From Paracoccaceae bacterium (GTDB lineage Bacteria; Pseudomonadota; Alphaproteobacteria; Rhodobacterales; Rhodobacteraceae): a DNA stretch of 64,000 nt. This document shows, piece by piece, positions 1 through 18,943 of this stretch. The stretch is taken from contig JAFIEF010000004.1 in NCBI GenBank assembly GCA_020832655.1, forward strand, positions 1 through 64,000, in the 5' to 3' direction. Under the pieces are notes generated by a model, which saw only the letters and a list, made by a program, of their open reading frames with translations, did no database searches and was not told the DNA's origin. Position numbers and translations under genes: made by a program. How positions within the stretch are numbered: the stretch's first letter is position 1; the number at the start of each line of letters is the position of its first letter.

Positions 1-532
1 CGACCATTGTTCTTGAACCAATGGCGAACAAGGTCTCATTCTACCAGATCGAGAAGACAGTGCGCGGCAAGGATGCGGACATGCGCCTTGTAGCCCGGCA
101 TGAACATGCAGCCCCGATCATCACTGCGCTCAAGCCGTGGCTGAAGGCCCAGCTCTCGCGCATCCCGCAGAAATCCCAACTCGCCGAGGACATCCGATAC
201 ACCCTCGCGCACTGGCCCGGCCTGATCCGCTTCCTGGAAGACGGGACGCTCGAACTGGATACCAACCCGGTCGAGAACCAGATCAGACCAATCGCCCTGA
301 CAAGGAAGAATGCACTCTTCGCCGGGAATGAAATCGGCGCCGAGAACTGGGCCATGCTGGCCTCACTGGTCGCAACCTGCAAGATGTCCGACGTAAACCC
401 GGTCGACTATCTTGCCAACACCCTGCGCGCCATCCTCGACGGCCACCCGCAAAGCGGCATCGAAGACCTCATGCCATGGCGCTTCAACCAACCGTCAAGC
501 CTCGCCGCATAGGGTGACGCCGTCGCGCTTAC
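1..532 (+). mobile_element. IS66-family insertion sequence, right end
   Basis: This is the 3' end of an IS66-type element whose left part lies outside the window. The end of the transposase gene is followed after the stop by a short terminal stretch ending in CGCGCTTAC, matching the usual ...TTAC end of IS66 elements (they begin GTAA). IS66 elements usually make an 8-bp target duplication, which would here be bases 533-540. That cannot be confirmed without the left end. The IS end lies only about 5 bases from the att repeat of the neighbouring integrated element. Confidence 0.7.
3..512 (+). CDS. tnpC: IS66 family transposase, C-terminal part (partial)
   Basis: This is the C-terminal portion of the DDE transposase of IS66 elements. 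The visible stretch contains the family-typical IRYTLAHWPGLIRFLEDG region, the LDTNPVENQIRPIALTRKNALFAG block carrying the last acidic catalytic region, and the C-terminal NGHPQ-like and MPWRF motifs. The frame is open upstream of the first ATG (base 21) to the window edge, so the ATG is probably internal and the gene starts outside. Full-length IS66 TnpC is around 500 residues. Whether the missing part is intact cannot be seen. Confidence 0.85.
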   Translation, partial: TIVLEPMANKVSFYQIEKTVRGKDADMRLVARHEHAAPIITALKPWLKAQLSRIPQKSQLAEDIRYTLAHWPGLIRFLEDGTLELDTNPVENQIRPIALTRKNALFAGNEIGAENWAMLASLVATCKMSDVNPVDYLANTLRAILDGHPQSGIEDLMPWRFNQPSSLAA

Positions 533-537
533 GGTTG

Positions 538-556
538 TTTGGCTCCGGCGGTAGGG
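538..556. repeat. attachment site, distal end (attL/attR core)
   Basis: Nineteen bases identical to the 3' end of the tRNA-Asn gene at 13846-13864. After the repeat the sequence diverges (TCCGCAGC here versus ATCGAACC in the tRNA). This is the expected footprint of integrase-mediated insertion into a tRNA 3' end: the tRNA side is restored and a short core copy is left at the other end. Confidence 0.85.
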
Positions 557-919
557 TCCGCAGCAAAACCAGAAAAAACCTTTTGGAATCAACGGTTGGC
601 CCTCTGCGAAACAACCGCCGGACCCGTATTGTGCCCAATCTTTTGTGACAGTCAAGGGCACAAGCCTTACGCACTCTCGGGGAATCGACGCTGAAAAAGT
701 AAGGAACATAGCAAGAACCTTTTCGCTCTCTCGTCGAGTTCTCGTCGCAGCACAAGAGATAGTGTCGTGTGCAGGGCGTGAGACCAACTTGCATTGCTGC
801 CTTCCTGATTTACGCTCAATCCTCCGAGTTTCGGGATTGACCCATATCTTGGGACAAGCAAGAATCCACAAGCCAGCACACGGCATAGACAGCAAGAGAT
901 TACAGATGAGGAACAAGGA
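557..919. other. non-coding left end of the element
   Basis: No convincing gene is seen here; the ORFs listed in the track lack family resemblance or start signals. Just inside the att core is CGCAGCAAAACCA, which recurs near the integrase start at the other end of the element. The last bases hold the ribosome-binding site of the next ORF. Confidence 0.5.
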
Positions 920-1273
920 ATGAACAACCCACAAGCCTCGATGGCCGAGTTGAGAAAGATAAAAGCAAAGGGCGTGAAATATCGGGGTCCCTATCAGGGA
1001 CGCTGGTTTCACGTCGGGGTTGCATTTGAGTGCGATGATGTTGCTGCAACAATGCGGTTGGGTGCGGCTCTTGCAAAATCGAAAACGCTCGCTCCACTCT
1101 TGAAAAATGAGATACATACTGATAACTCGGGTGACCAAATCCTTGTCTCATTTCACGCCCTCCACGTATACCCAGACGGGCCAAAAGTTGAGAATGACAG
1201 GTTGCAGTTTATGCTGGCCGAGTCTTTTCAAGCACAAAGTGAGTGGCAAGAACGGAACAAGGGTAGGTTATAA
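920..1273 (+). CDS. hypothetical protein of the element (117 aa)
   Basis: I do not recognise this protein. A strong ribosome-binding site, AGGAACAAGGA, directly precedes the ATG and supports a real gene. The product is small, basic at the N-terminus, without a signal peptide or membrane segment, and contains a GRWFHVGVAFECDD stretch typical of a folded globular domain. It converges on the res gene, with about 50 bases between the two stops. Its position at the distal end of the element suggests cargo. Function unknown. Confidence 0.6.
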   Translation: MNNPQASMAELRKIKAKGVKYRGPYQGRWFHVGVAFECDDVAATMRLGAALAKSKTLAPLLKNEIHTDNSGDQILVSFHALHVYPDGPKVENDRLQFMLAESFQAQSEWQERNKGRL

Positions 1274-1325
1274 GCCAATCCCTTGGTCGGCTATTCCTTA
1301 TGCTGCAACGCGGGGAATGCAAACA

Positions 1326-3986
1326 TCACCGAGCGATGGTCGCCTGAATGAGGTCGAACCTTCGTTCGGTCGGCATACAAAACAGACATTGCCCACCGCT
1401 GGCTTCTGCCCAAGCGTTCCCAATCTGTCGCTTGACTTCCTCTGCTTCGTAAAACTGTTTGCCCTTGTATTCGACGACAAGCGTTCTCCCGTCTTGAAGC
1501 ATTACAACGAAGTCGGGAAAGAACTTTCGATGAGGTAGTTGTAGCCAGAATGCGTTTCTTTTGTCGTCAAGATTACGAATCCAATAAAGAACCTCATCAA
1601 GTCGGTCGATGTGAACGGCACAATCAAACTCTTCATCACTGTCGAAGTCACCGACGAGAGGTGTGTAATGTTTAGAAAACTTCGTCCCACCCGAATAGAT
1701 TTTGTTAGGGGCATAGGTCGCCTCGTCAAAAATCACCGAGTGTTCCGCACTTATGGCAAAGTCTTGGGCGTTTGCAGCAAATAGAGCATTGTAACGACCG
1801 ACTTCCCTTTCCGACCGCAGGTCTCGAATAAGGTCGGCCAATGCCCGCCGTAGGTCGTAGCGATTACGAGCCAGCACATCGAGCGGCGTTCCCTCCGATA
1901 TCAATGCGTCAAGGGCTTTTGAAATGAACACGATAGCACTTGGCTTTGTTATATCTGGGTGATGAATGCCGGAGTCGAGCCAGTTGGCAAGCCGTGCTGG
2001 TGTCCAGACTGGCTCCCGCACAATCCCGTTGAGTTGTCCTTGCAGGTTTCGAACAAATGATATCTCCAACTTGCCCTTGTCGGTGACATCAATGTTGCCT
2101 GTCTGGCTTCGGTCGATAATCTTGAAACGCTCGGTTATGGGTGACGGGTCGCATTCGTCAAGCCGCCAAGGCAAGTCAAGGAAATGCTCCTTGCTGAACA
2201 GTTCAAGTTCGCCCTGATTTCGGAATGCCAACAATGGCACAATGAAAGGGGGCTTGTCGTCTTCGTCTGCTGCCGATGTCTGGAAGTTATTCGACCTGGC
2301 ATAAAGGCGGTCAATCGTTCTGCTGACATTCGGCACGGTCGCCAGACCAAGGTGAAGAATGTTGCGGCTTTCTCGGGACATCGGCCCTGTATAGGCCAAG
2401 GTTCTTTTTTCAGGGTCAAAAGAAACACGGGAACGAACAGAGGGCGGCAAGCGGTTGATTGCGTCGGAAAAAATCTCCGGCGACACATCTTCTTGTGGCA
2501 GAGGGTCCGATTCAAATCGCTGTTGTGCTGCGGCCTCGGCAAATCCAAGATTGTGCTGCGGGGCAATCAAGGTTTCGGCTTCAAGGCGGTTGAAGCCCGC
2601 TCCGTCCACAAGCCCGTTTTTCAACTGCTGGGCAGTCTCGTCAAAACTCTTGGACACGATGAACGCATAAGACTGGTTCAATGCGTCTCGCCGTTTGCTG
2701 CGGGCTTTCGGCATTCGCAGCACTCGGCCCAATATCTGCTCAACGGCAACCGCCGACACTTGGTCGGCCAGTGAACACAGAACATAGGCAAAGGGGCAAT
2801 CCCAACCTTCTTTCAGTTTTGCCACTGTTATGATGAAGCGAACAGGGCAATCCTTCGCTTCAATGTTGTCAATGCTGTCGAGGTCTTTGCGTGGTCCGGT
2901 ATGAACTGCGATTTGTTCTTTCGGAACGCCTGCCTCTTCGACGAGGTGCTTTTCCAGCACTTCCCAAGTCAAGCGGTGTGGGTCTTTCGCACTGGCACTT
3001 TGTGCCTGAAACAGAATGATGGGGCGAATATACTCGCCCGTTTCCTGCTCTTCGGCCTTGGCGGCTTCTTCCAGCATTCGCTGGCAATCCCGTGCCGCTC
3101 CTACGCTCTTTTTCCAATCGCCGTCCGTGGTCAAGCGGATTGGCATTTTTATCATCTCTTCTGCCTTCAACTCGGCGGCAGACACAGAATAGAGAATGTT
3201 CGAGGCGTGTTTGTCTCGCTCGGGCTTATGTTCGGTCTGCGGGGTGGCCGTAAGTTCGAGAATGAGCGACGGATTGAAGCGGGCAAGCGTGCGGAAAGAC
3301 AAGTCGCTCCGACTGTTATGAGCCTCATCGACAATGACCATTGGCCGATGAAGTTTCAGCAGGTTGGCAAGCGAAGCGATTGGGCGGCGGGTGCCGTCCA
3401 TAATATCGAGGTTTGCCATCTGCTCTACGGTCAAGCCCTCGAAATGGTCCATCAACGCCCCTGCGTCTTCATAGACCTTCAAGCCCTCGGGATTTTCCTT
3501 TCCTTTGTCATCTTCACGGCGGAAAGATTGAATCGTGGACACGATGACAACTGCCCCGCCCAATGCGTCGGCTCGTGACATCGACAAGGCTTCGGCCTTG
3601 GTTATCACGGTGAAGTTGCGGTTGAAGTCTTTCATCAGTGCCGCCCGATATGGGTGGCCTTCTGTCTTCAATGCCTGAATGGTCTGGTCCAGAATGGCGG
3701 TCGAAGGGACAAGCCACAAAACCATCGGGTTCGGGGTTTGCAGCAGGTCACGGGCGGCAATGCCGATGGCATAGGCCGCAAGCAATGTTTTCCCGCCGCC
3801 TGTCGGCACTCGAAGGCAGACATATGGTGTGCCATCGGCCACGGCGGGGGCGTGGCGAAAGGGCAGATTTGTGGCCTTGTAGAAAGCCAGATTTGCCCCG
3901 TGCTCTTGGGTGTCTCGCAGATAAGATGACAGGCGTTCAAGGGAAAGCCGCTGATATTCCTTCAACTCGAAGTTGGTCGCCGCCAT
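1326..3986 (-). CDS. res: type III restriction endonuclease, Res subunit
   Basis: The 886-residue product is the helicase-nuclease subunit of a type III restriction-modification system. It acts with Mod, translocates or slides along DNA, and cuts near unmethylated sites. The N-terminal part has a superfamily 2 helicase core: Walker A PTGGGKT at about residues 61-67, DEAH at about 220, and motif VI-like EQILGRVLRMPKA at about 420. The C-terminal end has a PD-(D/E)XK nuclease signature, FFPDFVVML then VVEYKGK. Length is in the usual range (850-1000). The start ATG lies one base after the mod stop (TGATATG), so the pair is probably translationally coupled. No frameshift or broken motif is visible. 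Confidence 0.93.
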   Translation of the reverse strand: MAATNFELKEYQRLSLERLSSYLRDTQEHGANLAFYKATNLPFRHAPAVADGTPYVCLRVPTGGGKTLLAAYAIGIAARDLLQTPNPMVLWLVPSTAILDQTIQALKTEGHPYRAALMKDFNRNFTVITKAEALSMSRADALGGAVVIVSTIQSFRREDDKGKENPEGLKVYEDAGALMDHFEGLTVEQMANLDIMDGTRRPIASLANLLKLHRPMVIVDEAHNSRSDLSFRTLARFNPSLILELTATPQTEHKPERDKHASNILYSVSAAELKAEEMIKMPIRLTTDGDWKKSVGAARDCQRMLEEAAKAEEQETGEYIRPIILFQAQSASAKDPHRLTWEVLEKHLVEEAGVPKEQIAVHTGPRKDLDSIDNIEAKDCPVRFIITVAKLKEGWDCPFAYVLCSLADQVSAVAVEQILGRVLRMPKARSKRRDALNQSYAFIVSKSFDETAQQLKNGLVDGAGFNRLEAETLIAPQHNLGFAEAAAQQRFESDPLPQEDVSPEIFSDAINRLPPSVRSRVSFDPEKRTLAYTGPMSRESRNILHLGLATVPNVSRTIDRLYARSNNFQTSAADEDDKPPFIVPLLAFRNQGELELFSKEHFLDLPWRLDECDPSPITERFKIIDRSQTGNIDVTDKGKLEISFVRNLQGQLNGIVREPVWTPARLANWLDSGIHHPDITKPSAIVFISKALDALISEGTPLDVLARNRYDLRRALADLIRDLRSEREVGRYNALFAANAQDFAISAEHSVIFDEATYAPNKIYSGGTKFSKHYTPLVGDFDSDEEFDCAVHIDRLDEVLYWIRNLDDKRNAFWLQLPHRKFFPDFVVMLQDGRTLVVEYKGKQFYEAEEVKRQIGNAWAEASGGQCLFCMPTERRFDLIQATIAR

Positions 3987-3987
3987 A

Positions 3988-5625
3988 TCAAAGCCCCTCG
4001 ATCTGGTAAGGGATTTGCTTGAAGACCACGCCCTCTGCCTTCAAGCGTTCGGGGGTGACGGTCGTTCCTTCGGCATAGACAACCCGCATACCTTCAAAGC
4101 CTTCGGGCGGGGGCGGCAGGTCGGCCAGTGCGGCAGGGGTCAAGACATTGCCAGAGGCTTCGCGGGCAAAGCCTTCCTGCCCTGGCGAAAACAGCAGATA
4201 GACGGCCTTCTCGGCGTGCTTGCCAAGAAATGATGTCTGTCCCGTCGCCTTGGTCGGAATGGGCACGCCAGTTTCGGCAAAGAAGATGTGAGCGGCAAGG
4301 TCGGAAAAGGTTACGCCGCCGTCAATATCTCCGAACTCGTTGAAGAGTGGCACGCCAAGGTGACAGAAACGGAAGCCGCCACCGAGTGCTTCGACGGGCT
4401 TGGTTGGGTCGCCACCTTTGTCATAACCTTCGACCGAACGCCGCAAGCGAGTGGCCGTAACTTCTCTTGCAATCTTTTCTTCCATTTCAATCAAAATGAA
4501 GCGTCGATTGCCGCCGTCCTGTTTGTTGAGGTCCAACACGGCGTGGCCCGTCGTGCCTGAACCGGCGAAAGAATCTAAAATGAGGTCTTCTGGACCTGCT
4601 CCGATTTTCAGCAAATGGGCAATCAATGTGGTCGGTTTCGGTGTCGCAAAAACTTCATCTTGTCCGTGAAAGATTTCAAGAATCTGCCGCTTTGCCGACT
4701 GGTTGTGTCCTACATCTGCGTGAAGCAATACCGTCCGAGGAACAACGCCGCCTACATCGGAAAGGAACCTCTTGAATCGTGGAGAGGTATTCCTTCCAGA
4801 TTTCCCCCAAAAAATACGATTTTCTTCAACGTGCTTTTCGTATGTCTCTCTGGGGTAACGCCAGACGGCAGTAGGTGATGGCCAAATCTCTTCTCCCGTG
4901 TTCGGGTTCACAATTGCATACCAACCATTAGGTCGTTCTTGCTTGGACTTATTTGAGGTGTAGTTGTCTGATTGCCAGCGTCCTCGTGGGTCATCATCAG
5001 GATTTTGATACTTCCCGTCCTGAGCCGATGTTCTTTCTAGTTTGTTGGGTGACCACAGATTCTTCTGTTTTGCATAGACCAAGATGTAGTCGTGGTCATC
5101 ACTGAAAAATTTAGCGTCGTTTGCTGGTGCATATTTCTTTTGCCAAACCAAGCAAGCGATGAAGTTGTTTGTCCCAAAAACCTCATCAAGAAGAACTCGC
5201 AACCGATGGTGTTCATCATCATCAATACTTACAAAAATAACGCCATCTTCCCGCAAGAAGTCACGCAACAAGCGAAGTCGGGGATACATCATACAAAGCC
5301 ATTTATCGTGGCGGGACAGGTCTTCGGCTTCCTTGCCGACGACCTTTCCAAGCCACGAACGGATTTCAGGACTGTTCACATTGTCATTGTAAACCCAACC
5401 CTCATTCCCTGTATTGTAGGGCGGGTCGATGTAAATGCATTTCACCTGTCCAGCGTAATAGGGCAACAGGGCTTTCAGGGCTTCGAGGTTGTCGCCCTGC
5501 ACCAGCAGGTTGCCTGCGTCGGGGTCGCCTGCCGACAACTCTCCATCACAATGAACAAGGCGATACGGCACTTCTTGGTGGTGGTGTTCGACCGCCGATT
5601 TTCCAATCCAGTTCAATGATGGCAT
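3988..5625 (-). CDS. mod: type III modification DNA methyltransferase (Mod, N6-adenine, beta class)
   Basis: The 545-residue protein methylates adenine in the recognition site and gives the Res/Mod complex its specificity. Motif IV DPPYNTG is at residues 67-73 and motif I LDSFAGSGTTGHAV lies far downstream (about residue 355). This order (IV before I) defines the beta class used by type III enzymes. The stretch between the motifs is the expected target-recognition region. It is the first gene of a two-gene operon with res. No simple-sequence repeats that would suggest phase variation are seen in the gene. The recognition sequence cannot be read from the protein. Confidence 0.92.
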   Translation of the reverse strand: MPSLNWIGKSAVEHHHQEVPYRLVHCDGELSAGDPDAGNLLVQGDNLEALKALLPYYAGQVKCIYIDPPYNTGNEGWVYNDNVNSPEIRSWLGKVVGKEAEDLSRHDKWLCMMYPRLRLLRDFLREDGVIFVSIDDDEHHRLRVLLDEVFGTNNFIACLVWQKKYAPANDAKFFSDDHDYILVYAKQKNLWSPNKLERTSAQDGKYQNPDDDPRGRWQSDNYTSNKSKQERPNGWYAIVNPNTGEEIWPSPTAVWRYPRETYEKHVEENRIFWGKSGRNTSPRFKRFLSDVGGVVPRTVLLHADVGHNQSAKRQILEIFHGQDEVFATPKPTTLIAHLLKIGAGPEDLILDSFAGSGTTGHAVLDLNKQDGGNRRFILIEMEEKIAREVTATRLRRSVEGYDKGGDPTKPVEALGGGFRFCHLGVPLFNEFGDIDGGVTFSDLAAHIFFAETGVPIPTKATGQTSFLGKHAEKAVYLLFSPGQEGFAREASGNVLTPAALADLPPPPEGFEGMRVVYAEGTTVTPERLKAEGVVFKQIPYQIEGL

Positions 5626-5916
5626 TCTTGGCTCCCTGTTCTTGTTGGCACCTTGTCCCGTCCGGCGGTAATGTTCAAGCCGCTATCGGGACACCGGGCA
5701 GAGCGATGTTCGGCAAAGCCTTGGTTTTGTTGAACAGTTGCGAATGAACAAGCGGATGTGTCACGCAGACACGCGGCATCTGCTCTTTGCAACGCTCAAC
5801 GAACGATTGTAGCAGACCAGCACATACGCCGATGAACATTCCCTTCACACTTGACATACCCCTCTCCGCTGGTCAGGATTTCGGACAACGAGGGTAGGCT
5901 CCTGGGTTTTGCTACA
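5626..5916. other. intergenic region upstream of mod
   Basis: This region separates the mod-res operon (minus strand) from a small plus-strand gene cluster, so it should hold divergent promoters. A TTGACA hexamer sits at 5851-5856 on the plus strand, but I could not pair it with a well-spaced -10 box. A 60-codon minus-strand ORF (5675-5857) has a purine-rich leader but no protein-like features and is not annotated. Confidence 0.4.
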
Positions 5917-6177
5917 ATGGAAATGCTGTTCGCGATGTTAATTGCAAAACTCCTCGGAATTGCGGGTCTTGGCGGATTATTATCTGGGCTCTTCATTCGC
6001 TCCTTGCCGCTCGCTTTGAGTGGTGGGGTTGCAGCAGGATTTATTGGCCAAATCGTATTGAGTAGCCTACGAAGCTCGAGTGTTGGTTTATTGAGTTGGA
6101 TTATGGCTATTGTTGCAGGGATTCTAGCAGCTGCAATCGGGTGGCTTGTGCGTGGTAGGAAAATCTCCGCAAAATGA
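5917..6177 (+). CDS. small hydrophobic membrane protein, unknown function
   Basis: The ORF track extends to 5851 from a TTG; the first ATG is at 5917 (MEMLFAMLIAKLLG) and gives 86 residues. The protein is almost entirely hydrophobic, with about three membrane segments and a glycine-rich AGLGGLLSGLFIRSLP stretch reminiscent of small GlsB/YeaQ-like membrane proteins. I do not claim membership. It ends in a short basic tail RGRKISAK. Its stop overlaps the ATG of the next gene (ATGA), suggesting coupled translation. No strong ribosome-binding site is visible, so the start is uncertain. Confidence 0.55.
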   Translation: MEMLFAMLIAKLLGIAGLGGLLSGLFIRSLPLALSGGVAAGFIGQIVLSSLRSSSVGLLSWIMAIVAGILAAAIGWLVRGRKISAK

Positions 6178-6686
6178 GCAAGATGATATGGCGTAATGAA
6201 AACTTAGATGGTGCGAAATCTTCATTTCTGTATATAGCCAACTTGGCTAAACAAATTCGAGGTTCTTTTTTTCTATTCCAGAAAGGGCACAAAAATATGT
6301 CTGCGTCGCCACTCCCCATAAATGATTATGACGTAGCAGCAATAAGCAATCAAGTGCAAAGATGGCAATCAAACGGGCTCTTTGCGAGTTTCGACATCGC
6401 TGGTCGCTCTAATGGTGTAGCACTAATTATTCTTGAAAACTGTCTTTCTTTAAGTTACGGCTTCGCGGCGTTAGAAATACGAAAGTTCGGTATCAAACGC
6501 TTTATTGGAAAGAGATCTTATTGGGTAATTCAACTTTACGCCGGCGATAGTGCTACGGGACCGTTCCACAAAAAAGGCTGTGTCACCGGAAATATGCTTG
6601 TGAGTGCTCTCGCAGAAGCGGAGTTAGATATTAGGCACAACTTCATCAGCAAACTATCAATGGAATGGGCAACAAATTCAGTATAA
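6174..6686 (+). CDS. hypothetical protein of the element (170 aa)
   Basis: I do not recognise this protein. It overlaps the end of the preceding membrane-protein gene by four bases (ATGA). An alternative start at 6297 (MSASPLPIND, 129 residues) has a better-placed AAAGGG leader, and residues 1-41 look less protein-like, so the shorter form is possible. There is no signal peptide or clear membrane helix. The sequence is noticeably AT-rich compared with host genes. Placed between the type III R-M genes and ardC, it may be part of a cargo module. Function unknown. Confidence 0.5.
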   Translation: MSKMIWRNENLDGAKSSFLYIANLAKQIRGSFFLFQKGHKNMSASPLPINDYDVAAISNQVQRWQSNGLFASFDIAGRSNGVALIILENCLSLSYGFAALEIRKFGIKRFIGKRSYWVIQLYAGDSATGPFHKKGCVTGNMLVSALAEAELDIRHNFISKLSMEWATNSV

Positions 6687-6884
6687 CTCTTGTTTATTGC
6701 TATGACATTTGTCTGCTGACAAAATTTTACCTGCGTTGCGGAGCAAAAGAGGGTTGGAAACAGATTACCCTTTGCCAAAAAGAGAGCCTGTCGATAGAAA
6801 GTTAGTAATCTTGTGGTGAAAGTCCTTTCTATTGGGCTACACACATTTTTAAGTGACCTATGAAGGACAGAGAGCGGAGGCGGT

Positions 6885-7163
6885 ATGAAAGAATCGCGAC
6901 GGTTCGAAATCAATAATGAAATCGAAACTCTGCAAAGAGGGATGGACCCGAATGGAAACTTCTGGATAGGACTTGGAGCCTTTGGTATTATTGCGACTGC
7001 ACTCGGACTTCAGGGTGATGGTGTGGCGGCAGGTCTTGGGATTGCTGTTTCAATCGGGCTTTTGTTGTATGGGTTCGCTGCAAAGGATAAGGTCAAAAAG
7101 TCGGAAGAAAAGATTAGGATTTTGCAGAAGACACTCGACCTCGCAAAGCCTAACGAGAAATGA
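6885..7163 (+). CDS. small membrane protein with coiled-coil-like ends (92 aa)
   Basis: A GGAGGCGGT leader just before the ATG supports this gene. Residues about 1-20 form a charged helix (EINNEIETLQRG). Two hydrophobic segments follow (about 26-42 and 48-66, with a glycine-rich turn), then a charged C-terminal helix, KVKKSEEKIRILQKTL, that could form a coiled coil. Topology is therefore likely cytoplasmic N and C ends around a membrane hairpin. No known family is recognised. It converges on ardC. Confidence 0.6.
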   Translation: MKESRRFEINNEIETLQRGMDPNGNFWIGLGAFGIIATALGLQGDGVAAGLGIAVSIGLLLYGFAAKDKVKKSEEKIRILQKTLDLAKPNEK

Positions 7164-7225
7164 AAGAAGTAAGGATTATCGAATAAAGAGCCTGATTCTT
7201 GTTTGAGATTTTTTGGTTGTGGCGG

Positions 7226-8110
7226 CTATTCAGCCGCCACATATCCAACGTGTTTCTCAAGTGCGTAAATAAAATCCACGGCTTTCTGGGCTTCACTTGC
7301 TGCACGGAAAATCGCTTTCTTGTCTTCCTTCATCGCTGCAAGCCAACCTTCGATATATGCCCCGCTCTGGGCAAAGTCGGGGGTCAAGCCAAGCGTTACC
7401 GACAGAATGCAGTTTCCGATTTCGGCAATCAGTTCTTCAAAGGCATATGCCTTGCGGTCGGAAAACCGTTCAAAGCGTGCAAGGCGGGTGCTGGCTCCTG
7501 TCCAGTGGGTGAGTTCGTGGGCAAGTGTGCCATAATACCCGTTGGCGTTGTGAAATGTCTGAATCAACGGCATATGAATCAGGTCTTTGGTAATGTCGTA
7601 ATAGGCTCGGGGCTTTGATGTCGCTTCGATCTTGGCACCTGTTGCGGCAAAAAACGCGTCCAGATGGGCGACAGGCTCGGTGCCAAGGTCTGCGGCGGGT
7701 TCTGGAATGTCGTAATATTCGGCGGGCAATCCGTCTATCTGGTCGGCGTTGAATACCCGATAGCCTTTTGCATAGGGGATTACCTTCTCTTCGCCGTTCT
7801 CGTCTTCTTTCTCGACGGTGCCAAACTTCACAACGGTTGCCGATTTCTCGCCTTTGCGGACATTGCCGCCAAGTTCCTTTGCCTGCTTGAAGGTCAACCA
7901 GCGTGCCGATGTGTAGCCCTTGGCCGACGCGATAGACCACAACACAAGAATGTTGATTCCCCGATATGGCTCGCCGTTGTGACGCAAAGGCAGACTCGCC
8001 CCCTTGCTGCTGCCTGTCCAGGGCTTCCGCCACGGTGGGCAACCTGCTTCGATGGCCTGCATAAGTTGGTCGGTGATTTGCTGGTGAAGGTCAAAAGTCG
8101 CTGCCGCCAT
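7226..8110 (-). CDS. ardC: ArdC-type antirestriction protein, ssDNA-binding with zincin domain
   Basis: ArdC proteins protect incoming single-stranded DNA of conjugative elements from host nucleases. The N-terminal ~120 residues match the ArdC ssDNA-binding domain (CPPWRKPWTG, PYRGINILVLW, WLTFKQAKELGG). The C-terminal domain carries a metalloprotease-like HELTH at residues 198-202 followed by an ELIAEIG glutamate helix. I chose the ATG at 8110 because GGAG lies about 7 bases upstream; the track's longer start at 8164 adds 18 unlikely residues. It lies beside the relaxase gene on the same strand, separated by the palindromic block, consistent with a transfer module. Confidence 0.88.
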   Translation of the reverse strand: MAAATFDLHQQITDQLMQAIEAGCPPWRKPWTGSSKGASLPLRHNGEPYRGINILVLWSIASAKGYTSARWLTFKQAKELGGNVRKGEKSATVVKFGTVEKEDENGEEKVIPYAKGYRVFNADQIDGLPAEYYDIPEPAADLGTEPVAHLDAFFAATGAKIEATSKPRAYYDITKDLIHMPLIQTFHNANGYYGTLAHELTHWTGASTRLARFERFSDRKAYAFEELIAEIGNCILSVTLGLTPDFAQSGAYIEGWLAAMKEDKKAIFRAASEAQKAVDFIYALEKHVGYVAAE

Positions 8111-8746
8111 TGTCAACTCCATTGTGCTTGGAAGAGCAATGTGAGTTCTTTCCCCAAAGGCCAAAGCCGTCTAACTTCCGCCTTGGGCGGGACATCTCTG
8201 CTCTTCCGTTTGAAATGCCCATACATTTCAAAGGGCAGAGCAGAGAGGGCATAGCCCGACCTGCGGTCTGGCAGGCACGGTGCAACTGGGTGAAGCCCGT
8301 GAAAACGGGAAGGAACCGCCCGCTTGCGGGTGGAAGGAACCGGTTTTCTCGGGCGGAACTGCTGCAACGCAGCACTTGCCGGTTGTGGCGTGCCTGCCAG
8401 ACTGGTAGGCGGAACATTCTAAAACGAAAGGATTCAAAGCAGGGTGAATGGCAATCTGCCATTGAGTGCTGCTGCGGCTATTTCACGCTCAATCCCGCCG
8501 TGAGGGATTTCGATTTCTTATATGAAACCTCTCTTCGGGCTTTTTATATTCCAGAAATACTCCCATATCTTTTTTAGCCGAACGGACGCTCCCCCGTGAC
8601 CTCCCAAGGCAAGGGAAAGATTGAAACAAATCCTATATGGCCATAAAATGGGTTTGCGAAGATTTTTCCCGTCCTTCCCGCCGCATAGGCGGCTTCGAAA
8701 GTCGAATGAAACTCCTGTTTGGCCCTCTGTCTCCAGAGGGCCACTT
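8111..8746. repeat. non-coding palindromic region between ardC and the relaxase gene
   Basis: No credible gene is seen. The block is rich in inverted repeats. One long hairpin is at about 8194-8247 (CTCTGCTC..TTTGAAATG, loop, CATTTCAAA..GAGCAGAG). A larger nested structure at about 8265-8403 has outer arms TCTGGCAGGCAC / GTGCCTGCCAGA and inner arms GCCCGTGAAAAC / GTTTTCTCGGGC; in the centre are two copies of GGAAGGAACC flanking CCCGCTTGCGGG. Such a region could be a replication origin (the element encodes a RepA-like ATPase), a structured RNA, or part of a transfer region. The sequence does not decide. Confidence 0.6.
8721..8742 (-). terminator. stem-loop just after the relaxase stop
   Basis: GGCCCTCT / AGAGGGCC form a perfect 8-bp stem with a 6-base loop about five bases downstream of the relaxase stop codon. 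There is no clear U-tract, so it may act as a weak terminator or as an mRNA 3' end stabiliser. Confidence 0.4.
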
Positions 8747-9589
8747 TCATTCCCGCTGTCGCTGTTCACCGCCATTTGCGTCAACGGCTTTACTGTTTTG
8801 CTTCATACCTACATCTGCCAAGTTCAGGATTTCATCAATGCTCTGTTCGATATCATTGCCATCAGTGAAGAAATCGAACACTTCTTTTGCGGCCTTGTCT
8901 TTCGCACGGACGGCACGCCTTTCCGCCCCTTCGTGTTTTGTTGGCTTCCGGCGAAGTCCACGCTCCTTGAAACTTCGCCATTCAACGCCATTCTCACCGT
9001 GTTCTTTTGCTGTTTCATTCAGGACATCGGCAATCCGTTTTCGCCACCTTTTCGGTGCACCCCTCTCGTTGAATCGTTGCACGTTCCGCCGTCGGATTCT
9101 TGTGGCGTTTCCGCCGCTCCTGATTATGGCAGAGTGTCTGCTTTCAACTCCGTCCACGGTGATGAAGTGCAGATGAGCATTGTTCTCCTTGTCGATGTGC
9201 TGAACGATGAACACCGAAGCCTCGGAACCCTCTGGTGCCAGTTCTTTTGCCAGTTGGGACATAGCGGCTTTCACGGTTTTCTCACCCCAAGAGTTGGGAA
9301 GTGATATTATTCCAGTTGTTGCAATGCGTCTGCCAACTCTGCCACCTTTACCCGCTTCCGCACGAAATCTTTTTCGCAACATAAGCCGAGCCTCTTTCGG
9401 CGTTCGGACTTCATCGCCATCTTCGTTTTTCAGGCCCTGCCAGCACATCAATCCAGCGGCATTCTCTCTGGCGATATAGTTCAACGCTCCATAGCACCTT
9501 TTCAGCGGGTCTGTCTTTCCAAGGCTCTTACTCTTTGCCGCTGGACTGCTTGATATACCCTTAAATTTTGTTGTCAGTTCGAGTCCCAT
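8747..9589 (-). CDS. mobA: MobA/MobL-type (MOBQ) relaxase
   Basis: The relaxase nicks oriT and leads the single strand into the recipient. The probable catalytic tyrosine is Tyr38 in ALNYIARE, which resembles the DYIQRE tyrosine motif of RSF1010 MobA. The metal-binding signature HIDKENNAHLHF (His131, His139, His141) matches the H-x-D...N-x-H-x-H pattern of the MobA/MobL family. The 280-residue length corresponds to a relaxase domain without the primase extension seen in RSF1010. The tail is charged and alanine-poor (RRKPTKHEGAERRAV). The leader GAGGGAAAA precedes the ATG. A strong hairpin with TGCG motifs lies about 40 bases upstream and is the candidate oriT. Confidence 0.87.
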   Translation of the reverse strand: MGLELTTKFKGISSSPAAKSKSLGKTDPLKRCYGALNYIARENAAGLMCWQGLKNEDGDEVRTPKEARLMLRKRFRAEAGKGGRVGRRIATTGIISLPNSWGEKTVKAAMSQLAKELAPEGSEASVFIVQHIDKENNAHLHFITVDGVESRHSAIIRSGGNATRIRRRNVQRFNERGAPKRWRKRIADVLNETAKEHGENGVEWRSFKERGLRRKPTKHEGAERRAVRAKDKAAKEVFDFFTDGNDIEQSIDEILNLADVGMKQNSKAVDANGGEQRQRE

Positions 9590-9612
9590 TTTTCCCTCGC
9601 AATCCAGAGGAA

Positions 9613-9672
9613 GTCACGCATTTTGAGTGCGAGGTTTATGCCTATGGGCATAAACCTCCTTGTGCGACTAAA
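9613..9672. other. oriT: candidate origin of transfer (oriT)
   Basis: A perfect 12-bp inverted repeat, GAGGTTTATGCC / GGCATAAACCTC with a 4-base loop, lies at 9631-9658, directly upstream of the relaxase gene. It is followed on the plus strand by CTTGTGCGACTA and on the minus strand by a stretch containing AAAATGCG. RSF1010-family (MOBQ) oriTs consist of an inverted repeat followed by a short spacer and a TGCG-containing nick region. Position and layout fit; which strand and base are nicked is unknown. There is no T-tract, so a terminator is less likely; an autoregulatory operator for the relaxase gene is an alternative or additional role. Confidence 0.6.
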
Positions 9673-9759
9673 CTCTTTCTATCTTCGAGGAATCTATTGC
9701 CTTCTTTGTTCCATTCCAAAAAATGACCTAAATGAACTCCAACAAATGAGGAGTGCAGT

Positions 9760-10212
9760 ATGTGGTATGATGTTGAACTTGCGAATTTTTCAAGAGAAAC
9801 ACGGGCGGCTTTGTCCCTATTTCTTCCACTCCCCAACGGTATGAGTGCCAGAGATTTTGACCGTGCTGCCCGGAATAATCGGCTTTTCGGTATTGCCCAA
9901 GCGTGGGAAAACACTCTGCTTTCCTCTTGTCGTTTGCTTGTCCTTTCGGTTCCTTCCGGGTCTTTCAGTGATACGCTTCGTCACGCCAGAGAAGTTGCCG
10001 AAAACTCCGATGGCCTTGGTCGCAACGCTCTCGAAAGGCTTGACCCGACGCTTTCTCTGCTGAAAGCCGAGTTTACCAGAAACGACCGTGCCCGCCGTGC
10101 ATTGCGGCGGGCTTTTCTGCGGCCTCCATATGCAGAAGCCCTGTCCAAAAGAAAAGGCGGCGGGGCTACGCCACAAAGGCAACGCCCCGCTCCTGGTGTC
10201 ATCAGGACTTGA
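9760..10212 (+). CDS. hypothetical protein (150 aa) between oriT and repA
   Basis: AGGAG about 7 bases before the ATG supports translation. The first ~110 residues look protein-like (WYDVELANFSRETRAALSLFLPLP, RLFGIAQAWENTLL), while the last ~40 are low-complexity and basic. Two terminator-like hairpins lie inside this 3' part, and the stop overlaps the end of repA by 11 bases on the opposite strand. The gene may therefore have been extended by loss of an earlier stop. The family is not recognised. Its location suggests a replication or mobilization accessory, which is inference only. Confidence 0.5.
   Translation: MWYDVELANFSRETRAALSLFLPLPNGMSARDFDRAARNNRLFGIAQAWENTLLSSCRLLVLSVPSGSFSDTLRHAREVAENSDGLGRNALERLDPTLSLLKAEFTRNDRARRALRRAFLRPPYAEALSKRKGGGATPQRQRPAPGVIRT
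10090..10118 (+). terminator. Rho-independent terminator inside the 3' end of ORF 9760-10212
   Basis: Perfect 8-bp stem GCCCGCCG / CGGCGGGC, 7-base loop, then TTTTCT in the plus direction. It falls in the coding sequence of the small ORF about 95 bases before its stop. Confidence 0.6.
10147..10190 (-). terminator. probable terminator of repA
   Basis: Stem GCGGGGC / GCCCCGC with a 17-base loop. Reading on the minus strand it is followed by CGCCTTTTCTTTT, and it lies just past the repA stop at 10202. Confidence 0.55.
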
Positions 10213-11353
10213 CCCGTATCGAACCGTCATCGGCCTTTTCGACCAATCCTTGTTTTGACAAGGTGTCAATCGCTCTCGCGATTGCTTTTCGCAGACTGTC
10301 GGGTTTGTCGAGTAAGGCGTTGAACGGACCAGTGACCTTGCTTCGCAGTGATGTGGCAGTATGGAAAACACCGCTTTGCTCTTGCTCTAACTGCCGAAGA
10401 GTTTGCAGCAAATGCTGAACCCGTGCGTCGGTGTCGGTTGCACCTGTTCCCTTGGGCTTGTTCACCATTGGTGTTGCCCCGATAACAGGTTGGGCAACAG
10501 GCAATGTAATCGGGTCGCCATCAGTATCTTGACCAACTTCAACGGCGGCAATTTTCAAGAACAGAGGCTCGCCCCGTGCAAGGCTCCGCTGCTTCTTTTG
10601 ATTGACGGCAATCACCATCTCGCCTTCCGTGGTGCGGGCTTCATTCAAAACAAGCAAAGTATCGCAGTTGCCAATCATTGCAGAAGAGCCACGCGGCTTT
10701 TCAGGGTCGCTATGCGTGGCGTGATGAACAATCATCACGTGAGCGTTGTGTTCGAGGGCGAGTTTTTGGGCATTGCTGATGGCTTTGCCCATATCGCGGG
10801 ACGAGTTTTCATCACCATCACCAAGGCACAAGTTCAGGGTGTCGAAGACAAGGAAGATTTTGTCTAACGCTCGTGCCTTCATATACTCGCAGAGTTCACG
10901 CCCAAACCTTTCCATCATCTCGCTATCAGTCAAATCAACTGATGAAGGAATGATATCGAACGGCAGGGCGTCGCTTCGTCGCTTGCCCAGCACTGCTGAC
11001 CCCCTTTCGGCAACGCCGATAGGGTCTTCTGCGGCAACATAGAGCGTTCCCGCTTGGGTTACTTTTCTGTCGCCAATGGCGTCACCGAGGGCGGCGTGAC
11101 CTGCAATCATCGCAATGACAGAGGTCTTGCCCGTGTTGGGCGGGCCTGCGAGCATACTAACCTGGCCGAACAAGAGCAGATCTTTCACCAGATATGCTCT
11201 CGGTGCCATACTGCAAAGCGTGTTGGCCGAGATGAGTTCCTTGCCCAAAAAGAGCGGCTTGGTTTCACCAAATGCTGGCGTGGCTTGCCCATCGTCGCCA
11301 GCGTCGATGAGCGTGGGAATGTCGAATGCGGTCGTTGAAGTTGGTTTGTTCAC
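10202..11353 (-). CDS. repA: RepA-like AAA/RecA-fold ATPase (replicative helicase type)
   Basis: The 383-residue protein carries GPPNTGKTS (Walker A, residues 70-78), a Walker B-like IFLVFDTLN at about 165, and MIVHHATHS at about 205. This is the pattern of hexameric RepA helicases of RSF1010-type replicons and related AAA_25 proteins. The C-terminal ~100 residues look like a winged-helix region (HLLQTLRQLEQ, ARAIDTLSKQGLVEKADDG). The start is GTG at 11353, preceded at good spacing by a full AGGAGG; this is why I keep that start. On an integrated element it may drive replication of the excised circle or assist transfer. No RepC-like initiator or iterons were found. Confidence 0.8.
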   Translation of the reverse strand: MNKPTSTTAFDIPTLIDAGDDGQATPAFGETKPLFLGKELISANTLCSMAPRAYLVKDLLLFGQVSMLAGPPNTGKTSVIAMIAGHAALGDAIGDRKVTQAGTLYVAAEDPIGVAERGSAVLGKRRSDALPFDIIPSSVDLTDSEMMERFGRELCEYMKARALDKIFLVFDTLNLCLGDGDENSSRDMGKAISNAQKLALEHNAHVMIVHHATHSDPEKPRGSSAMIGNCDTLLVLNEARTTEGEMVIAVNQKKQRSLARGEPLFLKIAAVEVGQDTDGDPITLPVAQPVIGATPMVNKPKGTGATDTDARVQHLLQTLRQLEQEQSGVFHTATSLRSKVTGPFNALLDKPDSLRKAIARAIDTLSKQGLVEKADDGSIRVKS

Positions 11354-11478
11354 GGCGGAACCTCCTGTTTTTTGCCAAGGCCCCGTGCCCTAGCCGAAAA
11401 GAGGTGGGAGATTTCGCCGCATTACAAGGGCAGAAGACGAACAAAAGTGAACAAAAGCAGAAAAAAAGCACTAATCGA

Positions 11479-11533
11479 GGAAAAGACACGGACGGACGGA
11501 CACCCCCTTAGGGGGAGTGTCCGTCCGTCCGTG
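11479..11533 (-). terminator. large hairpin after the integrase gene
   Basis: CACGGACGGACGGACAC at 11487-11503 pairs with GTGTCCGTCCGTCCGTG at 11517-11533. A further C-run/G-run stem with one bulge lies inside, giving about 23 paired bases and a tiny loop. On the minus strand it begins four bases after the integrase stop and is followed by TCTTTTCC, so it is most simply a terminator separating int from repA. The three GGAC repeats in each arm are unusual. Confidence 0.65.
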
Positions 11534-11537
11534 ACAT

Positions 11538-13724
11538 CTATTTTTCCAGCGGTTTTTCAATACCCTTGTCGGGTTCATCTCCGACAGGCGGGGGAGTTGA
11601 AGAAACCAGTCGCAAGGTCTGCGGCGTTTGTGAGAACATCATACGCCCGAAGGGCGGCAGAACCCCTGCATAGTTGATATTGTTCTTGTCCACGGCGTTT
11701 TTCAGGTTTTCCATCGTAAGCCCTGCACGCAGATAAGCCGTATAGGTGACCTCGGTATGCTGATGGCCCATCAGTATCTTCCGCACATAGTCTTCAACGC
11801 CGGCACGGGTAAGACGAACGTGGAACTCGGTTCGCAATGCGTGAAAATCAAGAAAGTCGTCCGTGATACCAACGCTGCGACGGTAATAGCCGAATCGCTT
11901 GCTCATTATGGCACTGAATGTTCCTTTCGATTTTGAGCGGGTCATATGAGGAAAGAGGCGAGACATTCCCTGCTGCCTGCGGATGTCCACCAGTTCAGGA
12001 AGGCCGAGGTCAAGCAAGGCGTTGTGAAGTGGCACACGTCGAATACTGCTTTCGGATTTGGTGGTTTGCGACCCGATTTCGTTCTGAACGGCGACATAGA
12101 AAATACCGTCTTCTTTGCCGAAGTCCCGAATCCGCAACTGCAAGATCTCTTCCAGTCGAAGCCCTGCAAACATAGCAATAAGCGGTGCCCAGAACAGTGG
12201 TTCATCGGGCGAGTCCAGTGGCTCACGGAAGACCTTCGTTCGAAGCAAGGTGTATATCTCTTCACCCCACCCCTTCCGGGCCACACGGTTCTCTGTCCGT
12301 TTGCGGCGATTTACCTCTGCCTCGGTCAACACCCGCCCCTTGAACGGATTTGATTCAATCAAGCGACGAGAAAGGGCGTAGTCGAGAATCGCTTTTAGTG
12401 CCGTCTGGTGGCGTTGGACAGTCCTCGCCGAAATGCGTTTTACCCGTGCTGCGGCCAATCGGTCTTCGATTTCTGCTGGCGGCAACCCTTGCTCGGCCAG
12501 TTTGCGTTCCATTTCATTTCGTGTCTCGACTTCATCACTGTCGATGTCTTCGACAACTTCCCTTGCCGTTCGCTGGTCATTTGCCGATTTTCCGTGGTTC
12601 TTGGGCAATTTCTGCACAAGAGCGTTGAAGTCGAGAATGTCGTCTTTGTTGATGTCGCGAAGTGGCAAATCCCCGACTATATCAGTGAACAATCTCACTG
12701 AAGCCCGAGCATTCCCAAGTGAAGATTTCTTGAAACTTTCGCCAACCCCTTCATAGGGCGTTTCATCTTCCTTTTTCAGCGTATAGCCTTCGCACCGTAG
12801 TTTGAGATACTGCTCGGCGAAAGCAGAGAAGGCAAGGTCGCTGTATTGTGGCTCCTGGATTGCGGATTTTGTGCTTCGGGTGTTGGCTTCCGGCAATCCA
12901 AGCCGTTTGGCAGAGTCATATAGGCTTCTGGCAATGCGGCGAGCGGCAGGAAGTTCTTGGGAAATATTTCTTCCCTCTTTTTCGCAGGTGGTGATGAAGT
13001 CATTCAGCAAGGCTCCTAGCCCGCTTGCGAAGTCCTCGATACGCTCCACCCCATCTTCATCATCAGGGTCAATAAGGCGAGATTCGGTCACATCGAGATA
13101 TGCGGTTTTGCGGTTTTCACTCTCGATGATGTTTTCTATCACCCCCAAACACTCCGCTCGGGTCTTTTCTTCCCAAGCGTAATACTCCTGTTCTTCTGGT
13201 GTTCGCTCTTCGGGTGGAGTCTCTTTGATACTGATATACTGTATTGGTGCCGGGGTCGTTCGCTTGAACATATCATCATAAGGCAACTGGGCTATTCCGA
13301 GTGACTGCCGCAGTTCCGCGTCAATGGTGGCAAACACTCGCTCCCGCACCTCTGGGGTCAATGTTGCAACATTCATCGTCCGGTAATGTGTGATGTATTT
13401 GCGGAATCCTTCGGTCAGCGTGAGTGCCATTTTGTCGATAAGGTCTTGGGCAGGGTGGTCGTTCATCGCTGTTATTTCCGTCTCAAACTTCGACCAGGCA
13501 CGCTCAAAGTGTTCGGCAATCTTGGCGGCAAGAAGGCGTGCTTCCCTCACTGATGAGGTTTGCAGGCTAACCGCAAGATGACCCCGTGCTTGTGCGGTCA
13601 CTCTGTTGTCTTCGTAACTGCCTGAAAAAACAGGAAGTTGGCCTTGTGAGATGATGATAGCGGGGTGACGGCGGCGAAACCACCATATTCTTCCCCGTTT
13701 TGAGAGATAGGCAATGCGTCCCAT
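11538..13724 (-). CDS. int: tyrosine recombinase/integrase of the element
   Basis: This enzyme catalyses insertion and excision at the tRNA-Asn att site. From the ATG at 13724 the product has 728 residues. It opens with MGRIAYLSKRGRIWWFRRRHP, typical of the N-terminal DUF6538 domain of long integrases; a middle region with coiled-coil-like charged stretches follows, then the catalytic domain. Catalytic residues are visible: the first Arg in AGLRLEEILQLR, then HALRTEFHVRL (His-x-x-Arg), MGHQHTEVTYTAYL (His and the nucleophile Tyr). I prefer 13724 over the track's 13766 because GGAG lies about 7 bases upstream. It sits next to the tRNA target, as usual for such elements. Confidence 0.92.
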   Translation of the reverse strand: MGRIAYLSKRGRIWWFRRRHPAIIISQGQLPVFSGSYEDNRVTAQARGHLAVSLQTSSVREARLLAAKIAEHFERAWSKFETEITAMNDHPAQDLIDKMALTLTEGFRKYITHYRTMNVATLTPEVRERVFATIDAELRQSLGIAQLPYDDMFKRTTPAPIQYISIKETPPEERTPEEQEYYAWEEKTRAECLGVIENIIESENRKTAYLDVTESRLIDPDDEDGVERIEDFASGLGALLNDFITTCEKEGRNISQELPAARRIARSLYDSAKRLGLPEANTRSTKSAIQEPQYSDLAFSAFAEQYLKLRCEGYTLKKEDETPYEGVGESFKKSSLGNARASVRLFTDIVGDLPLRDINKDDILDFNALVQKLPKNHGKSANDQRTAREVVEDIDSDEVETRNEMERKLAEQGLPPAEIEDRLAAARVKRISARTVQRHQTALKAILDYALSRRLIESNPFKGRVLTEAEVNRRKRTENRVARKGWGEEIYTLLRTKVFREPLDSPDEPLFWAPLIAMFAGLRLEEILQLRIRDFGKEDGIFYVAVQNEIGSQTTKSESSIRRVPLHNALLDLGLPELVDIRRQQGMSRLFPHMTRSKSKGTFSAIMSKRFGYYRRSVGITDDFLDFHALRTEFHVRLTRAGVEDYVRKILMGHQHTEVTYTAYLRAGLTMENLKNAVDKNNINYAGVLPPFGRMMFSQTPQTLRLVSSTPPPVGDEPDKGIEKPLEK

Positions 13725-13845
13725 TCTCTGGCTCCGGACTTTTGGGCGCAGCAAAAACCACGCCATTGGGCACAGAGGGCAGATTCACGGGAACGGCACG
13801 GGGCGGAATCCCCAAGCCATTGATTTCCCAAAAGATTATTTAGAT

Positions 13846-13864
13846 TTTGGCTCCGGCGGTAGGG
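13846..13864. repeat. attachment site at the tRNA-Asn 3' end
   Basis: Nineteen-base copy of the repeat at 538-556. It covers the encoded CCA, the 3' acceptor strand and the start of the T arm of the tRNA-Asn gene, so the tRNA stays intact after integration. Confidence 0.85.
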
Positions 13865-13922
13865 ATCGAACCTACGACCAATTGATTAACAGTCAACTGC
13901 TCTACCGCTGAGCTACGCCGGA
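13848..13922 (-). tRNA. tRNA-Asn(GTT)
   Basis: On the minus strand the sequence starts TCCGGCGTAGCTCAGCGG and ends with GGTTCGATCCCTACCGCCGGA-G-CCA; the 7-bp acceptor stem pairs perfectly. The anticodon loop is CTGTTAA with anticodon GTT. The CCA is encoded. The 3' end is the integration target of the adjacent element. Confidence 0.95.
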
Positions 13923-17792: not shown

Positions 17793-18943
17793 GCGGCAGC
17801 CCCTTTCCTGCGCAAACTGTCAAAGCGCGGATATTGCGCCAGATGGCGTGCGCGGATGATCAGCACCCAAAGCAGGATCGCCGTCGCCTGATGCGCAATC
17901 CCAAGCTGCCAGGGCGCGCCATGCAGCACTGTGACCACCCCCAGCACGATCTGCGCCAGCATCACCATGAACATGACATTGAAGGCCGCGCGGGTGGCGC
18001 CATGCGCCGATTTGCGCCCGCGCAGCCACACGATCACGGCGAAGATCGCCAGCAGGTAGCCCGCCTTGCGGTGGATGAACTGGGTCGTGGCCGGGTTTTC
18101 GAAGAAATTTACCCAGGCTGGCTGCATTGCGAACAGTTCGGGCGGGATGAAGACGCCATTCATCAAGGGCCAGTCGGTATAGCCGCGCCCGGCATCGATG
18201 CCTGCCACCAAAGCGCCAAGGATGATCTGCAGAAAGGCGAAATGCATCAAGCCGGTGGAGATGGAAAAAAGCCGCCCCTCGCGCGCGCGGCGCGCGGCGA
18301 TCAGGTCGGCTTCGGGGCGGTTGAGCAGATAGGCATACCACGCGATCATGCCCAGAATGACAAAGGCCAGCCCCAGATGCACGGCAAGGCGGTAGGACGC
18401 CACAGCCACCATCCCTTCTGTCAGGCCGGAAGCCACCATCCACCAGCCGATTGCCCCCTGCGCGCCGCCCAGCGCGCCCAGCGCCAGCAGGCGCGGGGTC
18501 CAGCCCGCCGGGATCATCTTGCGCAGCCAGAAGAACAGGAAGCCCACGCCCCAGACCAGCCCGATCACGCGGCCAAGCTGGCGATGCCCCCATTCCCACC
18601 AATAAATGACCTTGAACTCTTCCAGCGTCATGCCGCGATTGAGCAGTTGATACTGGTCAATCTGGCGGTATTTCTCGAACTCCTCCAGCCACATCGCATC
18701 GGACATCGGCGGAATAGCCCCGGTGACGGGGCGCCATTCGGTGATCGACAGCCCGCTATCGGTCAGCCGCGTCATACCGCCCACCACAATCATCACGCAA
18801 ACCAGCGCGAACAGGCTCAGCAGCCACAGTCGGATTGCCTGCCTTGCGCCTTTGGGCTGGCGGTCGATCACGCCCCCCTGCGGGGCGGGGGCGGGTTTGC
18901 GGGTCTCGCTGACCTCTTCGAAGATGGGGCGTTTTGCGGCCAT
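17789..18943 (-). CDS. ctaA: heme A synthase, COX15/CtaA family
   Basis: This enzyme oxidises the C8 methyl of heme O to give heme A for aa3-type cytochrome oxidase. The 384-residue protein has about eight membrane segments. Conserved motifs are GGMTRLTDSGLSITEW near the first TM, EWGHRQLGRVIG (heme histidine), AVHLGLAF, FIHRKAGYLLA and IAHQATAILLW, i.e. the four histidines of the two heme sites. The start at 18943 has CAGGAG at proper spacing; the track's extension to 19354 shadows olsA. It overlaps the downstream carboxypeptidase gene by four bases. Confidence 0.94.
   Translation of the reverse strand: MAAKRPIFEEVSETRKPAPAPQGGVIDRQPKGARQAIRLWLLSLFALVCVMIVVGGMTRLTDSGLSITEWRPVTGAIPPMSDAMWLEEFEKYRQIDQYQLLNRGMTLEEFKVIYWWEWGHRQLGRVIGLVWGVGFLFFWLRKMIPAGWTPRLLALGALGGAQGAIGWWMVASGLTEGMVAVASYRLAVHLGLAFVILGMIAWYAYLLNRPEADLIAARRAREGRLFSISTGLMHFAFLQIILGALVAGIDAGRGYTDWPLMNGVFIPPELFAMQPAWVNFFENPATTQFIHRKAGYLLAIFAVIVWLRGRKSAHGATRAAFNVMFMVMLAQIVLGVVTVLHGAPWQLGIAHQATAILLWVLIIRARHLAQYPRFDSLRRKGAAA

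What the first reader, a model, noticed from the sequence alone, without database searches (positions are those of the whole stretch)
538..13864. Integrative mobilizable element in tRNA-Asn carrying a type III R-M system
Seen: 19-bp direct repeats at 538-556 and 13846-13864, the second forming the tRNA-Asn 3' end; a tyrosine integrase beside the tRNA; relaxase, ArdC, RepA-like ATPase and mod-res inside; AT-richer composition than flanking genes. Known: tyrosine integrases target tRNA 3' ends, and IMEs carry a relaxase without a mating pore. Inferred: a mobilizable defence island.
Basis: partly seen in the sequence, partly recalled or inferred. Interest (0 to 1): 0.8.

Follow-up and report, generated by a model that had tools for sequence, protein, structure and literature searches.

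The report
Mobilizable island in a tRNA-Asn gene
A 13.3-kb piece of mobile DNA has inserted at the end of a tRNA-Asn gene in a Rhodobacterales-type bacterium; it carries its own integrase, a MobA-type DNA-nicking protein with a matching transfer origin, an anti-restriction gene and a type III restriction-modification system, and is a clear new example of a known kind of hitch-hiking element, with one unusual conserved folded sequence in front of its anti-restriction gene.

Summary
The 19-bp repeats (538-556, 13846-13864) are exact; three-mismatch chance expectation in the window is 0.03. The second is the tRNA-Asn 3' end. A relative genome (G040) has a homologous 9-kb element in the same tRNA-Asn, beside the same neighbour gene, with a 17-bp repeat and the same backbone (integrase 50%, AAA_25 ATPase, relaxase 60%, ArdC about 82% identity) but no type III R-M, so mod-res is swappable cargo. 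Other genus members have one uninterrupted tRNA-Asn site.

New here: (1) The relaxase model matches MobA R1162 and NES as top structures. (2) A MOBQ-type oriT lies upstream at 9631-9667 (12-bp hairpin, then CTTGTGCG); the same arrangement precedes all four relaxase homologues examined, one on a small circular Rep_3 plasmid. (3) The window starts inside an IS66 ending at 532, so the native left flank is not visible. (4) About 300 nt directly upstream of ardC form a covarying structure, absent from Rfam and shared with Rhodobacterales plasmids.

Verdict: new member of a known kind, an IME. Excision, transfer, restriction activity and the leader's function are untested. The leader is the most novel part.

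The parts
1..532 (+). 3' part of an IS66-family insertion (tnpC C-terminus 21-512, right end at 532); contig C111 begins at window base 1; not part of the IME
   Evidence: Pfam DDE_Tnp_IS66 and IS66_C; two other genomic copies of the IS right end stop matching at 532/533, and the window is C111:1-64000
538..556 (+). attL: distal copy of the tRNA-Asn 3' end (17-bp core 540-556)
557..669 (+). conserved inner attL arm region, about 78% identical to the G040 element; candidate integrase/accessory binding region (inferred)
920..1273 (+). 117-aa ORF of unknown function in the cargo slot
   Evidence: no Pfam, NCBIfam or PADLOC hit, no plasmid match
1326..3986 (-). Res subunit of a type III R-M system, 886 aa, motifs GGGKT, DEAH, PD-X-EYK intact
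3988..5625 (-). Mod subunit (beta-class N6-adenine methyltransferase), 545 aa, motifs DPPY, FAGSG intact
5851..6177 (+). small protein with hydrophobic stretches, conserved in the G040 element (L040 9193-9525)
6885..7163 (+). small protein with hydrophobic stretches, conserved in the G040 element (L040 9803-10126)
7226..8110 (-). ArdC anti-restriction protein (likely ATG start near 8110; the listed ORF runs from 8164)
   Evidence: Pfam ArdcN + MPTase-PolyVal; PDB ArdC 6i89/6sna E 3e-124; homologues start here
8137..8456 (-). conserved structured non-coding leader directly upstream of ardC; 60 consensus pairs, 21 with double changes
   Evidence: not in Rfam
8747..9589 (-). relaxase, MOBQ (MobA/MobL) type, 280 aa, HIDK...HLH metal motif, conserved Tyr38
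   Evidence: Pfam, alignment, fold match to 4ht4 NES and 2ns6 MobA R1162
9631..9667 (+). candidate oriT: 12-bp perfect inverted repeat 9631-9658, then C-TTGTGCG (nick expected after about 9666-9667)
   Evidence: RSF1010 nic in PMC4814116
9760..10212 (+). conserved 150-aa protein, unknown; divergent from the relaxase across oriT; possible relaxosome accessory (inferred)
   Evidence: 49% identical to L040 13929-14381; no Pfam hit; structure model unreliable
10202..11353 (-). RepA-like hexameric-helicase-type ATPase (AAA_25)
   Evidence: Pfam; weak PDB match to RSF1010 RepA 1g8y, E 5e-4
11487..11533 (-). long near-perfect hairpin (GGACGGAC... / GTCCGTCC...) just after the integrase gene, conserved in G040; terminator or regulatory hairpin (inferred)
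11538..13766 (-). tyrosine integrase, 742 aa (DUF6538 N-terminus, phage-integrase catalytic domain)
13846..13864 (+). attR: 3' end of tRNA-Asn (17-bp core 13848-13864)
13848..13922 (-). tRNA-Asn(GTT), integration target, kept intact

Best explanation
The stretch from 538 to 13864 is an integrative and mobilizable element (IME). Its tyrosine integrase recombines a 17-bp att core with the identical 3' end of tRNA-Asn, leaving the tRNA gene whole (anatomy shown, reaction inferred). When excised as a circle, the MOBQ relaxase would nick the + strand at the oriT at 9631-9667. It would then use a coupling protein and mating pore supplied by a helper conjugative element (inferred; the element encodes none that was recognised). 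The RepA-like helicase probably supports DNA unwinding or transient replication of the excised circle (inferred). ArdC, behind a conserved structured leader, would protect the incoming DNA from restriction in the recipient (inferred from R388 ArdC). The type III Mod-Res pair is passenger cargo inserted between the attL arm and the backbone; it would restrict phage or competing DNA and stabilise the island (inferred).
For: Exact att repeats and tRNA. Homologous element at the same site in G040 with the same gene order, its own 17-bp repeat and an abrupt end of similarity at the core, but without the R-M. Single uninterrupted tRNA-Asn core in genus members without the element; relaxase in 2 of 37 genus genomes and the close integrase in the same 2. 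Relaxase fold: top hits NES 4ht4 and MobA R1162 2ns6, both E 1.1e-5, probability 1.00. oriT-like hairpin + TTGTGCG upstream of all four relaxase homologues examined, in 0 of 100 simulated 64-kb sequences, matching the RSF1010 nic layout. One homologue sits on a small Rep_3 contig with a 95-bp end overlap. ArdC matches solved ArdC, and R388 ArdC is needed in recipients (PMC7213743). Intact Mod/Res motifs.
Against: No excision, circle or transfer data. The native left flank is missing because an IS66 and a contig end lie at 1-532. The relaxase has no match in 72,556 plasmids and is rare in the family (2 of 397), so it is not a common mobilization system. The nearest integrase relative is only 50% identical.
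Confidence: 0.9

Rival explanations
1. A fixed, decayed genomic island: once an IME, now immobile, with the IS66 insertion at attL marking the start of decay.
For: IS66 has inserted within a few bases of attL.
Against: Integrase, relaxase, ATPase, ArdC, Mod and Res are all open and full length; both att cores are identical; the oriT-like site is intact.
Confidence: 0.2
2. A phage satellite or cryptic prophage remnant rather than an IME, since integrase plus AAA ATPase beside a tRNA is also satellite anatomy.
For: Tyrosine integrase with DUF6538 and an AAA_25 ATPase in a tRNA site are shared with satellites (general knowledge).
Against: No capsid, terminase or packaging gene among the profile-scanned proteins; MOBQ relaxase with matching oriT-like site; ardC and its leader are shared with mobilizable or conjugative plasmids.
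Confidence: 0.03
3. A small mobilizable plasmid captured by an integrase, able to replicate on its own through the RepA-like helicase.
For: RepA-like ATPase; a homologous relaxase on a small circular Rep_3 plasmid.
Against: No RepC-like initiator, Rep_3 protein or primase recognised in the element; the same integrated form at the same site in a second species.
Confidence: 0.15

Closest known systems
Integrative and mobilizable elements (IMEs), e.g. those reviewed in PMC5704250 (tRNA-Asn-targeting IMEs; MGIVchMoz6 with a type II R-M; GISul2 with RepA/RepC)
   Same: Tyrosine integrase, tRNA 3'-end target, own relaxase and oriT without a mating pore, plasmid-type replication factor, R-M cargo
   Different: Combination of MOBQ relaxase, AAA_25, ArdC with structured leader and a type III R-M; excision not tested
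RSF1010/R1162 mobilization module (MobA, oriT, RepA)
   Same: Relaxase fold; oriT layout hairpin then ..GTGCG|N; RepA-like ATPase
   Different: 280-aa relaxase without the fused primase, no recognised RepC or MobB/MobC, chromosomally integrated
Element in genome G040 (L040 9015-18040)
   Same: Same tRNA-Asn, same neighbour gene, same backbone and att core
   Different: No type III R-M; a different 289-aa cargo gene between relaxase and ardC
MobQ/ArdC modules of Rhodobacterales plasmids (e.g. Sulfitobacter alexandrii NZ_CP018079, Roseivivax pTHAF197b_d)
   Same: ardC with the same structured leader, beside a MobQ relaxase gene, TAAGTGCGCCC nick-like site in the same orientation
   Different: Longer annotated MobQ relaxase genes (about 1.3 kb), carry T4CP genes, extrachromosomal
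Frpo single-strand promoters of conjugative plasmids (PMC11541004)
   Same: Structured DNA upstream of an anti-restriction gene on a transferable element; the ardC template is the presumed transferred strand
   Different: No sequence-family test; no promoter match in the leader hairpins; ardC lies at the late end of transfer here, not in the leading region

Membership tests
IME | Integrase plus flanking direct repeats at a specific site | tested here: met
IME | Same site empty in relatives | tested here: met
   Single tRNA-Asn core in genus members without the element; native left flank of the host itself not visible, and no empty site with both flanks identical was obtained
IME | Own relaxase and/or oriT | tested here: met
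IME | No own mating pore | tested here: met
   No T4SS or coupling-protein profile among the main proteins of 538-13864
IME | Excision and mobilization by a helper | not testable with these tools
   Needs experiment; host helper genes not searched (cap reached)
MOBQ relaxase | HUH nuclease fold with H-x-D...H-x-H motif and N-terminal Tyr | tested here: met
   Tyr38 invariant in three homologues, catalytic role inferred
MOBQ oriT | Inverted repeat then a GTGCG-type nick motif upstream of the relaxase gene | tested here: met
   cleavage not tested
Type III R-M | Adjacent Mod (beta-class MTase) and Res (helicase + PD-ExK nuclease) | tested here: met
   activity not tested
ArdC | ArdC-N ssDNA-binding domain + metallopeptidase domain | tested here: met
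Frpo/ssi promoter | Hairpin carrying -35/-10 elements transcribed from ssDNA | tested here: inconclusive
   Strong conserved hairpins, but the promoter scan found none in the leader itself

The most novel reading that the evidence does not exclude
The roughly 300-nt segment upstream of ardC is an undescribed structured regulatory element, shared by this IME and many Rhodobacterales plasmids. It also occurs ahead of other genes (a ParB-like gene region, possibly a DUF3560 gene). It acts either as an RNA leader or as a folded single-strand-DNA promoter or priming site that switches on establishment genes during DNA entry.
Probability: 0.5. Interest if true: 0.7.

Novelty: new member of a known kind. 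Interest (0 to 1): 0.45.

Why it matters
The element gives a two-species, same-site comparison that separates backbone from cargo, with a small relaxase/oriT pair that can be tested in vitro. Having both an anti-restriction gene and a restriction system on one mobilizable element poses a clear question of how the two are ordered during entry. The conserved structured leader of ardC offers a testable case of early-entry gene control outside the enterobacterial plasmids where Frpo promoters are known.

Tried and rejected
Scans of named genomes with the relaxase and with the two-integrase alignment found no relatives, and a scan of viral contigs with the relaxase alignment found none. Relaxase against plasmids: no match. 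Joining the element to its true left flank through the IS66 target duplication GGTTGTTT failed. G040's left-flank genes were not found beside tRNA-Asn in G049, so no empty site with identical flanks on both sides was obtained. The structure model of the 150-aa ORF was too poor to search. The idea that ardC lies in the leading region was rejected: both the IME and two plasmids place it at the late end given the nick orientation.

Full report
Observation. The two 19-bp repeats are exact, lie 13,308 bp apart, and are the only copies in the genome. The right copy covers the 3' end of tRNA-Asn(GTT) at 13848-13922, minus strand. G+C inside is mostly 0.43-0.57 against 0.60-0.67 on the right. One correction: contig C111 starts at window base 1, inside the C-terminal part of an IS66 transposase. 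Other copies of that IS end in the same genome stop matching at 532/533. So what lies left of 538 is an IS insertion a few bases from attL, and the chromosomal left flank is not in the window.

Boundaries by comparison. In the same-genus genome G040 (L040) the same tRNA-Asn carries a 9-kb element with direct repeats of TGGCTCCGGCGGTAGGG (9015-9031, 18024-18040) beside the same metallo-beta-lactamase-fold neighbour. Aligning the ends shows similarity beginning exactly at the core on the left and running through the inner arms; on the right it continues into the tRNA. The backbone order is shared: integrase (50% identical), AAA_25, a 150-aa plus-strand ORF (49%), relaxase (60%), ArdC (about 82%) and two small proteins with hydrophobic stretches. 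The type III R-M and the 117-aa ORF occupy a slot that is only about 50 bp wide in G040. G040 instead has a 289-aa gene of unknown function between relaxase and ardC. Of 37 genus genomes only these two carry the relaxase and the close integrase. Many others show a single tRNA-Asn core, six with a shared terminator-like sequence next to it. Another DUF6538 protein sits at the same tRNA in G019 and a similar ORF in G010, which suggests a hotspot.

Mobilization. The 280-aa protein at 8747-9589 matches MobA_MobL. Its predicted structure (mean pLDDT 66) finds two significant PDB matches, the NES relaxase 4ht4 and the minimal MobA relaxase of R1162, 2ns6, both E 1.1e-5. Just upstream, on the plus strand, 9631-9658 is a perfect 12-bp inverted repeat followed by C-TTGTGCG. 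The same arrangement, with the hairpin sequence changed but still paired, precedes the homologues in L040, in the G119 contig L061 and in G525 L067. No simulated 64-kb sequence of 100 had such a site. The published RSF1010 nic substrate has the same layout: hairpin, then TAAGTGCG/CCCT (PMC4814116); the R1162 oriT as I remembered it occurs on 135 plasmids, all typed mobilizable. L061 is a 5-kb contig with a 95-bp terminal overlap and a Rep_3 initiator, so a relative of this relaxase lives on a small plasmid. No coupling-protein or mating-pore profile was found among the main proteins.

Cargo. Mod and Res match their PADLOC profiles over full length and hold the expected motifs. The nearest plasmid homologues are adjacent on a Sphingopyxis plasmid: Res 72%, Mod 53%, with the methyltransferase the more diverged of the two. 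ArdC matches the solved ArdC at E 3e-124; ArdC of R388 works in recipient cells against type I restriction (PMC7213743).

Structured leader. A non-coding stretch directly upstream of ardC (8137-8456, minus strand) is conserved in G040 at 82% and in 38 plasmids and 18 of 397 family genomes, mostly at 72-77%. In most of the close cases ardC follows directly; in others (L091, L080, L082) a 149-167-aa gene and a ParB-like gene follow, and a short match (L092) is followed by a DUF3560 gene. The consensus has 60 pairs, 97% of cells paired against 36-51% in slid controls, and 21 pairs with changes on both sides against 9.5 in shuffles. Folding z-scores are -6.6 (DNA) and -7.0 (RNA). Rfam has no family for it. 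Whether it acts as RNA or as ssDNA is open. The nick orientation places ardC late in transfer, both here and on two plasmids, which weakens but does not exclude a Frpo-like role (PMC11541004).

Mechanism and status. Shown from sequence: att sites, target, gene content, oriT-like site, cargo variability. Inferred: excision, nicking, helper-dependent transfer, ArdC protection, R-M activity. IMEs in tRNA genes, including tRNA-Asn, with replication factors and with an R-M system are already known (PMC5704250; Mesorhizobium IMEs beside tRNA-Asn, PMC8627217). This is therefore a new member of a known kind.

Noticed in passing
window 8137-8456 (-): Conserved, covarying structured segment upstream of ardC, shared with Rhodobacterales plasmids and absent from Rfam.
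   Followed up: partly
window 1-532: IS66 end within a few bases of attL; putative 8-bp target duplication GGTTGTTT at 533-540 overlaps the repeat; partner copy not found in the assembly.
   Followed up: partly
window 11487-11533: Long hairpin between integrase and AAA_25 genes (z -9.7 as ssDNA), conserved in G040 with compensating changes.
   Followed up: partly
L013, L025 (G010, G019) beside tRNA-Asn: The same tRNA-Asn has other integrase-like DUF6538 proteins in other genus members, suggesting an integration hotspot; DUF6538 was profile-tested in L025 only.
   Followed up: partly
L061 (G119:C10): Small probably circular plasmid (95-bp end overlap) with Rep_3 initiator, a 36-39% relaxase homologue and the same oriT motif.
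   Followed up: yes
L040 11867-12736: 289-aa gene of unknown function between relaxase and ardC in the G040 element; alternative cargo.
   Followed up: partly
window 9760-10212 (+): Conserved 150-aa protein of unknown family divergent from the relaxase across oriT.
   Followed up: partly
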